Source: Lachnospiraceae bacterium JLR.KK008 (GTDB taxonomy: Bacteria; Bacillota; Clostridia; Lachnospirales; Lachnospiraceae). From it: a DNA stretch of 64,000 nucleotides. The stretch lies in contig CP143548.1 of NCBI GenBank assembly GCA_037015955.1, forward strand, positions 2,474,001-2,538,000. Direction: 5' to 3'. Within the stretch, counting starts at the first letter, position 1. Each line of letters begins with the position of its first letter. Shown here piece after piece: positions 30,490 through 35,664 of this stretch. The position numbers and the translations under genes are program-made. The notes under the pieces were generated by a model that was not told the DNA's origin, did not search any database, and was given only the letters and a program-made list of their open reading frames with translations.

Positions 30490-31428
30490 ATGAAAAAAAG
30501 AAAAGCCGTCGTCTCCCTCGGCCATCAGGCACTGGGGTACACGACAACAGAACAGTGGGATGCCGTAAAGAAGACGGCCAAAGCGCTGGCAGACCTTGCG
30601 CAGGCTGATTATCAGCTCACGATCACACACAGCAACGGCCCACAGGTCAGTATGATTCATAAAGCAATGACCGAGCTGCGCCGGGTGAATCCGGACTATA
30701 CGCCGGTTCCCATGTGCGTCTGCTCCGCCATGAGCCAGGGCTATGTCGGATACGACATCCAGAACTCCCTTCGTTCGGAATTTTTGAGCCGCGGTATCTC
30801 CACTCCTGTCAGCATGGTGCTCACGCAGGTGACGGTAGACCCTTATGACGAGGCATTCTATGAACCGAATAAAATCATCGGCAGATATATGACAAAAGAA
30901 GAGGCGGAGACCGAACTGAACAAAGGCAATTACGTGACCGAATATCCCGGAAAAGGATTTCGTCGCATCGTAGCCGCTCCCAAACCGCTTCAGATCGTAG
31001 AGATCGAAACGATTCGCACTCTCTCTGACGCCGGTCAGGTTGTAATCGCCTGCGGCGGAGGCGGCATTCCGGTCATTGAACAGCGTCATGCCCTGAAAGG
31101 TGCTTCCGCTGTCATCGAAAAGGATTCCATCGCCGGCAAACTGGCCTCCGATTTGGAAGCTGATCTGCTCATCATTCTCACCAGCGTAGAACAGGTCTGC
31201 AAAAACTATGGTCAGGAGAATCAGCAGGCAATCTCCTCCATGACAGTCGCCGAGGCAAAGTCTTATATCGAAGAGGGCCAATTCGGTAAAGGTAATATGC
31301 TGCCGAAGATTGAGGCTGCTGTCTCTTATCTGGAATCAGTGCCGTCCGGAAACGTGCTGATCACTTCCATCTCCTGTGCACTGGAAGCCATAAAGGGCAA
31401 AACGGGAACGGTCATCACCAAAGACTGA
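30490..31428 (+). CDS. Carbamate kinase family protein with altered phosphate-binding loops
   Basis: 312 residues, AAAGGGG before ATG. Overall match to carbamate kinase (ArcC/YqeA) is clear: NGPQVSMIHKAM, CVCSAMSQGYVGYDIQNSL, VIACGGGGIPVIE near 190, GASAVIEKDSIAGKLASDLE, and GNMLPKIEAAVSYLES near 265. But the first loop, normally LGGNAL, reads LGHQAL, and the second, normally THGNGPQ, reads THSNGPQ. Both touch the substrate phosphates. It may have altered activity or another acyl-phosphate substrate. No arginine deiminase or ornithine transcarbamoylase genes are in view, so an arginine-degradation role is not supported here. Confidence 0.85.
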   Translation: MKKRKAVVSLGHQALGYTTTEQWDAVKKTAKALADLAQADYQLTITHSNGPQVSMIHKAMTELRRVNPDYTPVPMCVCSAMSQGYVGYDIQNSLRSEFLSRGISTPVSMVLTQVTVDPYDEAFYEPNKIIGRYMTKEEAETELNKGNYVTEYPGKGFRRIVAAPKPLQIVEIETIRTLSDAGQVVIACGGGGIPVIEQRHALKGASAVIEKDSIAGKLASDLEADLLIILTSVEQVCKNYGQENQQAISSMTVAEAKSYIEEGQFGKGNMLPKIEAAVSYLESVPSGNVLITSISCALEAIKGKTGTVITKD

Positions 31429-31496
31429 AACACCGTCTGACGGCGTATATTTTTCCGTTTTCTGCACATGCTGTTCCTGAAAGAGAGGAATCGCAG

Positions 31497-31727
31497 ATGA
31501 GTACAGAAAAAAACAGTGCAGGCAGCACACACAGACAAAACAACAACGATTTTCATTCGATTGATAACTACCCAACGAACAGCAGTTCGACCGGCAACTA
31601 TCCGACAAACGGCAATCCGGCCGATAACTATCCGACGGACTGCCATTCCCCGAAAGACAGTTCCCGGTACAGTCACCCGGATACGAGACCGTCAAAACCC
31701 GGTCCGGGCGGAGAAGCGGAAGAGTAA
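31497..31727 (+). CDS. Possible low-complexity protein with NYPT repeats
   Basis: 76 residues, GAGAGGAATCGCAG before ATG. Ser, Asn, Thr, Pro and Asp dominate, with three NYPT units (IDNYPTN, GNYPTNG, DNYPTD). Its TAA stop forms the start of the loop of a perfect 11-base-pair terminator hairpin. No signal peptide or family. The repeats and the tight fit to the terminator suggest a short translated unit after the carbamate kinase, but it may be spurious. Confidence 0.35.
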   Translation: MSTEKNSAGSTHRQNNNDFHSIDNYPTNSSSTGNYPTNGNPADNYPTDCHSPKDSSRYSHPDTRPSKPGPGGEAEE

Positions 31728-31743
31728 AACTCTTCCGCTTCTT
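31714..31743 (+). terminator. Terminator after the carbamate kinase unit
   Basis: AAGCGGAAGAG (31714-31724), loop TAAAA, CTCTTCCGCTT (31730-31740), then CTTTATC. Perfect stem. Confidence 0.8.
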
Positions 31744-31833
31744 TATCTGTCAGTCACCAATTCCGCAGAAGCCAGCTTGTCAATGAGAATGGCGTTATCA
31801 TCAGATATAAAAGTAATTATTATTTTTTATCCA

Positions 31834-32577
31834 TCAGCAGATCCCAAAAGCATTTTTTATATTATCCTCAAAGCATTTCGCACTATCGCATTGCTCTGTC
31901 ACAGCGTTCCATTCTTTACTCACTTCCCGCACCAGCCTGCTATAGACCGAAATGCTCTTTTTGGTTCCGGGTATCCGGATGCCATGATATGTTTTCTTCC
32001 TCGCAATAATGTTTTCCCATGGATCTGCCACCACCTCAACATTTTCACAATCCCGGTAAGCCGCGACAATCCATGCGTCCGTACTGTCGCAGGGAACTGT
32101 GATCACAATATCGCTCCGGTCTGCACTGACCCGTAAATACTTTCTGAGCAACATCTCCAGATGATTCCTGTAACCTTCAGAATTTTGCAAATGCTCCCTG
32201 CAGGGAAGCACGATCGGACACAGCTCTTTTATCACTTTTTCACATTGTAAAGGATGGCTGTCCTCTCTGCTCTCGCACACTGTCGTCCCGCACAGACAAT
32301 GTGATTCTTTTTCCTTTCTTGAAACATCTGCATCCATCTGAATCACAAGCAGATCGATCCCGGGAGTGACTTCATGGAGATACTGATCTAATATCTCTGA
32401 TGTAGTCTCGCACCATTTCCATACACCCTTCCAGCCATTTCCAAAACGCCCGGCCATGTCCGGTTCCGGCTGCAACCGCCGATAATCATTCTTTCTGCCT
32501 GTAATATGATCGATAGCCTCTTTGATAACGATATAGTCCGTCGGCCCCTCTCCGACAATGCCAATCATCTTTTTCAT
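31834..32577 (-). CDS. TOPRIM-like protein, partner of the AAA ATPase
   Basis: Start at ATG 32577 (MKKMIGIVGEGPTDY), overlapping the ATPase stop as ATGA; 247 residues. IGIVGEGPTDYIVIKEAI has the Glu and Asp spacing of TOPRIM motif 1 (hydrophobic strand, EGxxD), and DLLVIQMDADVSRKE near 90 fits the DxD motif that holds the metal. Several Cys (CLCGTTVCESRE, CEKVIKELC) could form a metal site. IVITVPCDSTDAWIVAAY near 165 is a second conserved-looking strand. This is the nuclease-like half found beside OLD/AAA15 ATPases in phage-defence pairs such as PARIS. The exact family is uncertain. Confidence 0.65.
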   Translation of the reverse strand: MKKMIGIVGEGPTDYIVIKEAIDHITGRKNDYRRLQPEPDMAGRFGNGWKGVWKWCETTSEILDQYLHEVTPGIDLLVIQMDADVSRKEKESHCLCGTTVCESREDSHPLQCEKVIKELCPIVLPCREHLQNSEGYRNHLEMLLRKYLRVSADRSDIVITVPCDSTDAWIVAAYRDCENVEVVADPWENIIARKKTYHGIRIPGTKKSISVYSRLVREVSKEWNAVTEQCDSAKCFEDNIKNAFGIC

Positions 32578-33749
32578 ATCAGCTCCGGAACTCCCCCCAG
32601 TCTCCCGTTGATCCATAATCTTGATAATGACTGCCCGGATTCCAGTAACTCATTGGAAACCTGAATTCGATCTATCACCGCATAACCATTCTGATCCCTG
32701 CTGACAGCAAAAAGACGGATGTCATCATTGCACAGATCTAATCCGTCCAATACAAGCGGATTATGTGTTGTCATAAAGACTGTCCGTCCCGATTCCTGTA
32801 TCAACTGACAAAACAATTCTGCTATTTTCTGAGCCAGTCTGGGATTCAATGCATGGTCAAAGCTGTCAATCGCAAACATGGACGGAGACTCCGGGTGCAT
32901 AGCCATACACAGCATAAACAACACATACAATGCCCCTTCACTGGCATCATAACCGGTAAAAACAGCATTCGTCTTTAAAAAGCGATCCTTAAATTCAATC
33001 ACCTGACGCATGGAGGGAACCCCTCGATTGAGATTAATTTTCTTCGGTGTCGTAATGGAAAAACCTGACGCCCAATCGATCAGATCAAGAATTTCTTCCA
33101 TATACAGCGTACCAAATTTCATATCGCCATCCACATTTTTCATCATTTCCTGTAACGCTTCTGCAATCCGCCCACCATGCAGTCCAACCGGGGCTGTCTG
33201 AGCAGGATCCATAACGGTCCCCCGAAGCGTCTGTGTATCCGGCTGGTAAATGCCATATTTCTCAATATATTGCCCCATTTTACGACATCTGGACCCGTCT
33301 AACTCTTCTGTCAGCATATAGTATCCGATGTGATTATTGAGAGGCGCATACGAGCGATTGCTTCTTCCCCACAGGGAGTTTCCATTCTCACTGATATTTT
33401 CCGAATGATATTTCCATGTATCGTCATCCGTTGGCGTTGTCAGATGAACGGAATATTTATACTCGTCTTCATCTTCCCAATCGATATCCAGGCTTACTGT
33501 CAATCCATCCCTGTTCATTGATTTAAATTTTGACTTATATAAAGCTGATGTACTTAATCGTATCCCTTTTTTCTGAAGACTGCTGCTGTTCACTCTGTCT
33601 GTCATTGCAGCGCTCAACACGCCAATCGCCTCCAATATGGTAGATTTGCCCGAACCATTGGCACCGATCAGTACATTTACTTTCCCCGGTTGGAAACTTA
33701 CGTCATACAGGGATTTGAAATTTCTGATTCTGATTTCCTTGATCGTCAT
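32574..33749 (-). CDS. ABC/SMC-like AAA family ATPase (AAA15/21 type), candidate defence component
   Basis: 391 residues, AAAGGAGAC before ATG. MTIKEIRIRNFKSLYDVSFQ then Walker A GANGSGKST near 33; signature-like YDASEGALYVLFML near 270; Walker B MFAIDSFDHALNPRL near 295, in which the position of the usual catalytic Glu is not Glu; H-loop MTTHNPLVL near 335. RecF/SMC-like head with no long coiled coil. Coupled by ATGA to the TOPRIM-like gene. In such two-gene systems the ATPase senses a phage factor and releases the nuclease. The upstream 250 bases are very AT-rich, which is unlike the flanks and fits horizontal gain. Confidence 0.85.
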   Translation of the reverse strand: MTIKEIRIRNFKSLYDVSFQPGKVNVLIGANGSGKSTILEAIGVLSAAMTDRVNSSSLQKKGIRLSTSALYKSKFKSMNRDGLTVSLDIDWEDEDEYKYSVHLTTPTDDDTWKYHSENISENGNSLWGRSNRSYAPLNNHIGYYMLTEELDGSRCRKMGQYIEKYGIYQPDTQTLRGTVMDPAQTAPVGLHGGRIAEALQEMMKNVDGDMKFGTLYMEEILDLIDWASGFSITTPKKINLNRGVPSMRQVIEFKDRFLKTNAVFTGYDASEGALYVLFMLCMAMHPESPSMFAIDSFDHALNPRLAQKIAELFCQLIQESGRTVFMTTHNPLVLDGLDLCNDDIRLFAVSRDQNGYAVIDRIQVSNELLESGQSLSRLWINGRLGGVPELI

Positions 33750-33917
33750 ATTGTCTCCTTTTGAAATCCATAATAGCCATTTTTATTTTTACTATTATAG
33801 CATATAGAATGCAGATATGTGTATCTAAATTTCAAAAAAATCATATATTATCTGGTTTTTCTGTATTTAGATATATGGTAATTTTATAAATATCCTTTTT
33901 TCGTCAATTTTTTTACG

Positions 33918-33949
33918 GCAAAAACAGCGCCACCGAAGCCGCGCTGTTT
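33918..33949 (-). terminator. Terminator of the pentose operon
   Basis: AAACAGCGC (33922-33930) / GCGCTGTTT (33941-33949), followed on the minus strand by TTTTTGCC. About 57 bases after the ribulokinase stop. Confidence 0.8.
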
Positions 33950-34005
33950 CTGTAAACCCAAACCATTCTTATTCCGTTTTCCTGCTGGCTTTGTCCGGTT
34001 GCCTC

Positions 34006-35664
34006 TCACTCTTTCCACTGATCAGCCAGCATCGCCAGCCGGAGGTATTCCCCATATTTCTGATGATAAAACGCTCTCTTCTTCTCATCCGGTACAAATT
34101 CCCGAATGCTCTTTGCCGCCATATTAACTGACGCTTCCTGCATCGTTTCATAGGCCCCGCCCGCCACGGCCGCATAAACTGCCGCTCCGAGCGCGCACGT
34201 CTGATCCGCATCAAGGATAGAAATCTTCTTGCCCAGCACATCGGCCATCATCTGCATCACAAATTCCGATTTTTTGGAGATGCCGCCGACGGCGACGACT
34301 TTCTCCAGCTCGATACCAGCTGCTTCAAACCCGTCCACAATCCGCCTCAGACCGCATACCGCGCCAAATACAAGCGAACGGAATAGGTAAGGCGCTTCCG
34401 TGCCGAGCGTCAGACCGCCAATCATCCCTCTCTGGAAGTCGTCTGTGTCCGGATACCTGCGCCCGTTAAACCAGTCGAGCGAGATCGGAAACAGATCCTG
34501 TGGCAGATCCTGCGCCTCCTTTTGCAATTTCGCCAGCATCGTATCACTCATTGTCTCACAAAGTCTGTCATATTCTTCCGCAGGCAGACAGTCCTTCGTC
34601 TGACAGATCGGCCACATGAGCACTTTCTTAAACCAGCCGAAAATATCACCAAACGCCGCCTGTCCGGTCTCGATGCCGACATAGTCCGGCAAAATCGAAT
34701 TTTCCGCCTGTCCGCCAAAGCTGCGTATGTCTTTTCCGGCCAAATCCTGTGCCTTTCCCACAAGCATATCCACCGCAGAAGTTCCGATCGTGCAGACGAG
34801 CACTTTCTCCCGGATTCCCGCACCCACCGCACCCGCATGCGCATCAAAGGAACTGCCGGAAACGCCAATTCCCTCCGGAAGGCCCAGTCTGTCTGCCCAC
34901 TCTTGCGTGAGCCGGCCGGCTTTCACTGCCGCAGGCTGCGGACTGTTGCCGTATCGCTCTTTCACAAGCGTGAGATACGGGTCGAGCGTCGACAGAATTT
35001 CATCTGACGGAAGGCCGTTCCATTTACTGTGCCACAACGCCTTATGTCCGGCGGCACAGGCGCTGTGATAAATGGTTTCCGGTCTCGTATCGCCACAGAG
35101 CAGTCCGACCATCCAGTCGCAGTGCTCTGTCCACGTATAAGCTGCCTCTTTTATTTTTTCATCCTGCCGGATCGTATGCAGAATCTTTGCCCAGAACCAT
35201 TCCGCACAATATTTTCCCTGATAAACACCATAATCAATATCACTTCCATGGGCAAAGAGCCTGTCGATCTCCTCTGCCTCCGATACGGCGGACTTGTCTT
35301 TCCAGAGCTGGAACATGGCATTCTCACATTCCGCAAACTGCGGCTTCAGTGCCAACGGCACACCTTCCCGGTCTACAGGGACCGGGGTCGATCCTGTCGT
35401 ATCGACCCCGATGCCTATGATATTGCTTTTTTGAGACTGCGAAAGACAGGCCACCGCTTCTTTGACGCATTTTTCCAGAGACTCCAGATAATCAAGGGGA
35501 TGCTGGCGAAAAACACTCTGCTCCGGATGTTGGTAGAGCCCCTGTGCCCACCGGGGATAAAGAGCTGTTCCGCCTCCTGCCGGTGTTCCGGAAGCGACAC
35601 TTACGATCGTTGCCCGGACAGAATCGCTTCCAAAATCCACACCAACCACAAACTTATCTTCCAT
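34006..35664 (-). CDS. araB: FGGY-family kinase, ribulokinase type
   Basis: 552 residues. GVDFGSDSVRATIVS is the ATP/sugar-binding start, GIGVDTTGSTPVPVD follows, TEHCDWMVGLLCG near 185 and GSSFDAHAGAVGAG near 275 are ribulokinase signatures, and VAVGGISKKSEFVMQMMADV near 455 is the ADP-binding motif. It phosphorylates L- or D-ribulose. Neither an arabinose isomerase nor ribulose-5-phosphate 4-epimerase gene accompanies it. It is the last gene of an operon with split transketolase and a ribose-type transporter, so the true substrate may be another ketopentose or tetrulose. Confidence 0.88.
   Translation of the reverse strand: MEDKFVVGVDFGSDSVRATIVSVASGTPAGGGTALYPRWAQGLYQHPEQSVFRQHPLDYLESLEKCVKEAVACLSQSQKSNIIGIGVDTTGSTPVPVDREGVPLALKPQFAECENAMFQLWKDKSAVSEAEEIDRLFAHGSDIDYGVYQGKYCAEWFWAKILHTIRQDEKIKEAAYTWTEHCDWMVGLLCGDTRPETIYHSACAAGHKALWHSKWNGLPSDEILSTLDPYLTLVKERYGNSPQPAAVKAGRLTQEWADRLGLPEGIGVSGSSFDAHAGAVGAGIREKVLVCTIGTSAVDMLVGKAQDLAGKDIRSFGGQAENSILPDYVGIETGQAAFGDIFGWFKKVLMWPICQTKDCLPAEEYDRLCETMSDTMLAKLQKEAQDLPQDLFPISLDWFNGRRYPDTDDFQRGMIGGLTLGTEAPYLFRSLVFGAVCGLRRIVDGFEAAGIELEKVVAVGGISKKSEFVMQMMADVLGKKISILDADQTCALGAAVYAAVAGGAYETMQEASVNMAAKSIREFVPDEKKRAFYHQKYGEYLRLAMLADQWKE

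What the first reader, a model, noticed from the sequence alone, without database searches (positions are those of the whole stretch)
31834..33749. Candidate two-gene defence system: SMC-like ATPase plus TOPRIM-like partner
The two genes overlap by ATGA, so they are made together. The ATPase has Walker A, a signature-like motif and an H-loop, but its Walker B (AIDSFDHALNP) lacks the usual catalytic Glu. The partner opens with GEGPTDY and later QMDADVS, the two acidic motifs of TOPRIM nucleases. This is the layout of OLD/PARIS-like phage defence, yet the partner's Cys-rich middle is not one I can place. Low-GC upstream DNA suggests transfer.
Basis: partly seen in the sequence, partly recalled or inferred. 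Interest (0 to 1): 0.8.

Follow-up and report, generated by a model that had tools for sequence, protein, structure and literature searches.

The report
Two-gene phage-defence candidate: ATPase plus nuclease
A gut bacterium carries a mobile two-gene module, an SMC-like ATPase paired with a probable metal-dependent nuclease, that likely protects against viruses; it belongs to a catalogued candidate defence family whose workings are not yet explained.

Summary
On the minus strand, gene A (33749-32574, 391 aa, ABC/SMC-like ATPase) overlaps gene B (32577-31834, 247 aa) by ATGA. Two name searches of open PMC papers gave no paper on it.

B is very probably a TOPRIM nuclease: with relatives down to 17% identity, 5 of the 11 invariant columns are E10, D14, D82, D84 and K207, in the order of the OLD-nuclease active site. 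Fold searches did not confirm this.

Two features stand out. The Walker-B glutamate of A is Ser or Asn in 32 of 32 aligned relatives, and the Cys/His cluster of B is in 28 of 32, missing from four distant ones, so it is an insertion, perhaps zinc-binding.

The pair is patchy, mobile and often broken; carriers include phage contigs and a plasmid with CBASS next to it. Clear defence systems among the nearest ORFs were seen at 2 of 32 loci. Best reading: a PARIS/AbiL-like switch; restraint, trigger, target and defence itself are inferred.

The parts
32574..33749 (-). Gene A: 391-aa ABC/SMC-like ATPase, PDC-M31A
   Evidence: PADLOC PDC-M31A 1.8e-154; Pfam AAA_21/AAA_15; AlphaFold2 model with Rad50/SMC-head matches
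31834..32577 (-). Gene B: 247-aa probable TOPRIM nuclease, PDC-M31B
   Evidence: PADLOC PDC-M31B 1.2e-99; conserved E10, D14, D82, D84, D/E167, K207
33642..33665 (-). Walker A of A (GANGSGKS, residues 29-36)
   Evidence: Lysine 35 is K in 32 of 32 relatives
32841..32876 (-). Walker B of A (FAIDSFDHALNP, residues 292-303), catalytic Glu replaced by Ser296
   Evidence: Position 296 is Ser in 28 and Asn in 4 of 32 relatives, never Glu
32536..32550 (-). First acidic motif of B (E10-G-P-T-D14)
   Evidence: E10 31 of 32, D14 32 of 32
32326..32334 (-). DxD motif of B (D82-A-D84)
   Evidence: D82 and D84 32 of 32
32191..32301 (-). Cys/His-rich insertion of B (H93 to H129), zinc binding inferred
   Evidence: C94, C96, C101, C112, C120 and H129 each in 28 of 32, lost together in four distant relatives
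33750..34005 (-). AT-rich stretch before A, probable promoter region
   Evidence: 36% GC at 33500-33999; promoter-like site 33823-33794, but sites in the region are no more than in shuffles (6 found, 5.6 expected)

Best explanation
The pair is a member of candidate defence family PDC-M31 and most likely works as a two-gene ATPase/TOPRIM switch of the PARIS/AbiL kind. A, an ABC-type ATPase that keeps the ATP-binding motifs but has lost the usual catalytic glutamate, forms a nucleotide-bound complex that holds B inactive and senses phage infection. When triggered, B acts as a two-metal TOPRIM nuclease that cleaves nucleic acid, rather RNA such as tRNA than phage DNA, and stops the infected cell. 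Shown here: the conserved gene pair, the conserved active-site constellation, the family-wide change in Walker B, and mobility. Inferred: restraint of B by A, loss of ATP hydrolysis, the trigger, the target, and defence itself. My estimates: B a TOPRIM nuclease 0.9; defence role 0.8; restraint and release 0.55; RNA target 0.5.
For: PADLOC PDC-M31A and PDC-M31B at 1.8e-154 and 1.2e-99. ATGA overlap in 26 of 31 loci; A and B distances correlate (r 0.92 over 21 pairs, 0 of 2000 permutations as high; shared ancestry not removed). E10, D14, D82, D84 and K207 invariant over 8 sequences down to 17% identity, position 167 acidic in 31 of 32; a class 2 OLD nuclease uses E, E+4, DxD, E and K (PMC6755086, passages). 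Predicted strand-helix order of B fits TOPRIM. A most resembles, after PDC-M31A, HEC-01A, AbiLi and other defence ATPases. Mobile carriers: phage contigs L053-L055 and a conjugative plasmid with CBASS beside the pair. Precedents: PARIS releases AriB, which cleaves tRNA; AAA proteins neutralise TOPRIM_OLD toxins (PMC10440598).
Against: No significant fold match for B in the PDB or viral libraries; no Pfam match above cut-off; hhalign with RloB aligned only the first motif. Few defence systems among nearest ORFs, 2 of 32 loci, and none by annotation beside the window's copy. Loss of the Walker-B Glu need not stop hydrolysis: in the OLD-family protein Cran1, alanine in place of either Walker-B glutamate had no effect (PMC12796447, passage). 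The one AAA-neutralised pair screened against phages in PMC10440598 gave no protection. No functional data for PDC-M31 were found.
Confidence: 0.55

Rival explanations
1. Split OLD/Gabija-like DNA nuclease: A and B form a standing complex that nicks or degrades phage DNA when activated, for example by falling nucleotide levels; B is not a released toxin.
For: The active-site order of B is that of a DNA-cutting class 2 OLD nuclease. GajA is described as having probably lost ATP hydrolysis while keeping nucleotide binding (PMC12796447, discussion passage), as Ser/Asn296 could suggest here. A shows sequence and fold similarity to OLD.
Against: Two separate genes, as in PARIS and AbiL, rather than one chain. 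After PDC-M31A the PADLOC ranking puts HEC-01A and AbiLi well above GajA. No helicase gene beside the window's pair.
Confidence: 0.27
2. Toxin-antitoxin or addiction module whose main role is to stabilise mobile elements, with phage defence absent or incidental.
For: AAA plus TOPRIM_OLD pairs behave as toxin-antitoxin pairs in E. coli (PMC10440598). Distant relatives sit on small mobilizable plasmids and in near-identical DNA of three genera.
Against: Many copies are chromosomal between ordinary genes and 8 of 29 uncut loci have disrupted frames, which a strict addiction module would resist.
Confidence: 0.12
3. Cellular DNA-repair or chromosome-maintenance pair.
For: A resembles RecF, Rad50 and SMC heads; an archaeal OLD protein, Cran1, has a cell-cycle role (PMC12796447, passages).
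Against: Patchy: 14 of 299 family genomes with any match, 7 of them full-length; A in 1 of 10 genomes of the genus. Disrupted copies and horizontal transfer.
Confidence: 0.06

Closest known systems
PDC-M31 (PADLOC-DB 2.0.0 candidate system)
   Same: Both proteins match over nearly full length
   Different: Nothing tested sets it apart; the library gives a model name but no mechanism
PARIS (AriA/AriB)
   Same: Two genes, ABC ATPase plus TOPRIM nuclease; A matches AriA models (6e-20)
   Different: B matches no DUF4435; PDC-M31A fits A far better than AriA
AbiL (AbiLi/AbiLii, RloA/RloB)
   Same: Two genes, AAA ATPase plus TOPRIM_OLD partner (PMC10440598); A matches AbiLi at 7.3e-25
   Different: B matches no AbiLii model; two AbiLi-type ATPases looked at keep Asp-Glu in Walker B
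OLD nucleases and Gabija (GajA)
   Same: ABC ATPase with a TOPRIM active site of E, acid at +4, DxD, acid and K
   Different: OLD and GajA join both domains in one chain (PMC10568477, passages); here two genes and no helicase neighbour

Membership tests
PDC-M31 | A matches PDC-M31A and the adjacent B matches PDC-M31B | tested here: met
   1.8e-154 and 1.2e-99, genes overlap by 4 bases
TOPRIM nuclease | Conserved Glu after strand 1 and DxD after strand 3 | tested here: met
   E10 31 of 32, D82 and D84 32 of 32; E10 follows strand 4-8 and D82 strand 76-80 in the model
TOPRIM nuclease | Fold similar to solved TOPRIM domains | tested here: inconclusive
   No PDB match at E <= 0.001; a RloB-like viral protein ranks 5th in BFVD at E 0.059, probability 0.72; model pLDDT 79.8
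PARIS | Partner of the DUF4435 (AriB) family | tested here: not met
   No DUF4435 match for B nor in the listing for 23 relatives
AbiL | Partner of the AbiLii/RloB family | tested here: not met
   No AbiLii match at E <= 1; no RloB match; hhalign aligned only the first motif
Gabija | ATPase and TOPRIM in one chain (GajA) with a helicase gene (GajB) | tested here: not met
   Two separate genes; neighbours are transport and sugar-metabolism genes
Anti-phage defence system in general | Measured protection against phage | not testable with these tools
   No experimental report of PDC-M31 found in two name searches

The most novel reading that the evidence does not exclude
PDC-M31 is its own class of ATPase/TOPRIM immunity: A is a naturally hydrolysis-dead, ATP-locked ABC protein (Ser or Asn in place of the catalytic Glu in 32 of 32 relatives), so the switch reads nucleotide state rather than running a hydrolysis cycle, and a zinc-binding insertion in B of the gut Bacillota sets trigger or substrate specificity while the nuclease core stays fixed.
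Probability: 0.2. Interest if true: 0.7.

Novelty: new member of a known kind. Interest (0 to 1): 0.48.

Why it matters
PDC-M31 is catalogued but, in the open papers searched, unexplained. This work gives it a testable mechanism: a conserved active-site constellation in B, an altered switch residue in A, and natural forms of B with and without the Cys insertion. If borne out it would add a distinct branch to the ATPase/TOPRIM immune systems, in which loss of the Walker-B glutamate is a family trait.

Tried and rejected
Rejected: DUF4435/AriB or RloB/AbiLii membership for B. RNA component: no Rfam match in 31000-34500 at E <= 1. tRNA-anchored island: no tRNA found in the window. Fixed housekeeping operon: apart from A and B, the largest cluster of flanking genes is in 5 of 36 loci, an ABC ATPase. 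Exact empty site: not shown. The metNIQ-carbamate kinase block was found in 6 of the 9 other genomes of the genus and the ribulokinase-transketolase block in one (G599); there the two are on different contigs, with no ribulokinase in the 8.7 kb after carbamate kinase.

Led nowhere: PDB sequence search with B (none) and with a B profile (two endoglucanases at E about 0.4); PDLC04571 in 299 genomes of the phylum found only the window's own; the Enterobacter pair had no match in E. coli genomes and its B none in viral contigs. DUF4435 and DUF4276 searches gave too few members for a profile comparison, so hhalign was run with RloB only.

Dropped rows: broken, cut and duplicate copies were left out of the motif counts. 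Some genomes seem to repeat records (equal contig lengths: L008, L018, L019, L027). Of the 115 nearest ORFs two very long ones were left out of the neighbour test, and three loci (L128-L130) were left out as repeat or remnant; that tool names families, not members, and lists at most 25 families. The eight proteins and ten were picked by eye and are no enrichment test.

Full report
Observation. The two genes lie on the minus strand, A 33749-32574 and B 32577-31834, overlapping by ATGA. A DNA search found the pair once in its 3.19 Mb genome.

Identity. PADLOC gives PDC-M31A for A (1.8e-154, residues 3-389 of 391) and PDC-M31B for B (1.2e-99). A is an AAA_21/AAA_15 ATPase with a Rad50/SMC-like predicted fold (pLDDT 81.7; best Foldseek E 4.8e-12). 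B has no Pfam match above cut-off (best OLD-like_TOPRIM, E 0.2; seen at E <= 1 in 12 of 23 relatives, best 0.019), and no NCBIfam or PHROG match. PDCs are putative candidates found by guilt-by-embedding, most without experimental validation, and many single-gene ones not tied to known defence islands (PMC12988326, passages). Two name searches of the open PMC library showed no paper on PDC-M31: one search found none, one search found no use of the names PDC-M31A or PDC-M31B among the 20 of 62 papers listed. Most subscription papers and all preprints on bioRxiv are outside that library.

Active site of B. Near relatives (26 distinct sequences) conserve too much to tell function. Distant partners lie beside A-like genes on an Enterobacter conjugative plasmid (L051), an IMG/VR contig (L132) and two small mobilizable plasmids (L133 Acinetobacter, L134 Paracoccus). 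L051 and L132 match both PDC-M31 proteins strongly. L133 and L134 match PDC-M31A (1e-56, 1.1e-70), but L134's partner matches the B models weakly (3.4e-11) and L133's partner none at E <= 1e-8; these two rows are the least certain. In an alignment of 8 with all four, 11 columns are invariant: E10, G11, D14, P37, W49, D75, D82, D84, W169, K207, Y212. Over 32 sequences E10 is 31, D14, D82, D84 and K207 are 32, and position 167 is D or E in 31. In a class 2 OLD nuclease E400, D455 and D457 serve metal A, E404, T506 and E508 metal B, and K562 assists (PMC6755086, passages). The order matches; pairing D167 with E508 and K207 with K562 is my inference. The AlphaFold2 model of B (pLDDT 79.8, 23 sequences) has strands 4-8, 31-34, 76-80 and 157-160 alternating with helices, E10 just after the first and D82 just after the third. 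Against this: fold searches gave nothing at E <= 0.001, and hhalign with RloB aligned only 24 columns round the first motif (P 0.029).

Cys/His cluster. C94, C96, C101, C112, C120 and H129 are each present in 28 of 32 sequences and missing together in L051, L132, L133 and L134, which have 15 to 26 fewer residues between D84 and W169 than the window's B. So it is an insertion on a shared core; its part of the model is poorly predicted (block pLDDT about 52-58). Zinc binding is inferred from the residues only.

Walker B of A. Position 296 is Ser in 28 and Asn in 4 of 32, never Glu; the Walker A Lys, the signature Gly and the H-loop His are 32 of 32. Two AbiLi-type ATPases near PDC-M31 copies keep Asp-Glu. 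GajA is described as having likely lost hydrolysis but kept nucleotide binding; on the other hand Cran1 tolerates loss of either Walker-B glutamate (PMC12796447, passages). So loss of hydrolysis in A is plausible, not shown.

Distribution and mobility. One genome scan gave 31 related loci. In the family 14 of 299 genomes have any match, 7 full-length including the window's own, and 0 of 14 control genomes. In the genus A is in 1 of 10 genomes, 1 of 4 of those at least 90% complete. Of 29 loci not cut by a contig end 21 are intact and 8 have a disrupted frame (with L003 counted as broken); assembly errors are possible, and L012, L013 and L015 are near-copies. Around the pair 15.7-18.5 kb are 99.47-99.99% identical between Flavonifractor, Anaeromassilibacillus and Pseudoflavonifractor records, strong evidence of recent transfer; a serine recombinase gene lies just outside that stretch in L012. 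In L053 the pair precedes terminase small subunit, terminase large subunit and portal genes; L054 and L055 have like flanks and count as one lineage. L052 is an unverified faecal phage scaffold.

Neighbours. In a test of 113 of the 115 nearest ORFs at 32 loci, not chosen by content, clear defence systems appeared at two: CBASS at L051 and AbiL at L123, where the PDC-M31 copy is a remnant. Families mad3 (5 members), mad8 (2), SspA and DndA (1 each) also appeared; I take these as generic matches, but the tool does not say which proteins they are. Further out and picked by eye: an AbiLi-type ATPase (L026), AbiEii (L125), a DpdE/ZorD-like helicase (L010) and an Mrr-type nuclease (L021). No control regions were scanned, so I claim no enrichment. 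The window's own neighbours are methionine transport, carbamate kinase, ribulokinase, transketolase and sugar transport.

Mechanism. Precedents point to a restrained nuclease. In PARIS a trigger makes AriA release AriB, which dimerises and cleaves tRNA-Lys (PMC11455837 and PMC12409363, passages). AAA proteins paired with TOPRIM_OLD toxins were shown to neutralise them in E. coli, and AbiL is cited as a related abortive-infection system; the AAA pair from Acinetobacter guerrae, with another toxin, gave no protection in a phage screen (PMC10440598, passages and first part of section 11). I take the restraint-and-release logic as most likely for PDC-M31, with a Gabija-like complex as main rival. 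Shown: gene pair, conserved active site, altered Walker B, mobility. Inferred: restraint, trigger, target, defence.

Verdict. A sound finding, read correctly in outline, of a catalogued but unexplained family. Interest 0.48.

Noticed in passing
window 31497-31742: A 76-aa ORF rich in Asn, Ser and Thr contains a 30-base unit repeated three times (31556-31645) and is followed by a perfect 14-base hairpin (31712-31742) between carbamate kinase and gene B; no NCBIfam match.
   Followed up: no
window 33822-33873: An imperfect 18-base inverted repeat lies upstream of A, over a promoter-like site; it could be an operator.
   Followed up: no
L012, L013, L015: Three chicken-gut type records of different genera (names An10, An250, An85) share 15.7-18.5 kb at 99.47-99.99% identity with the pair inside.
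   Followed up: partly
L133 1818-3814; L134 1786-3668: Two small mobilizable plasmids carry an A-like ATPase followed by a short partner with the same acidic motifs, possibly a sister family of PDC-M31.
   Followed up: partly
L123 6195-8078: An AbiL pair stands directly beside a PDC-M31 remnant, two related ATPase/TOPRIM-type systems at one spot.
   Followed up: partly
L006 8829-10756: A copy with a broken A lies between genes that look by eye like rpoA-rplQ on one side and ECF-transporter genes on the other.
   Followed up: no
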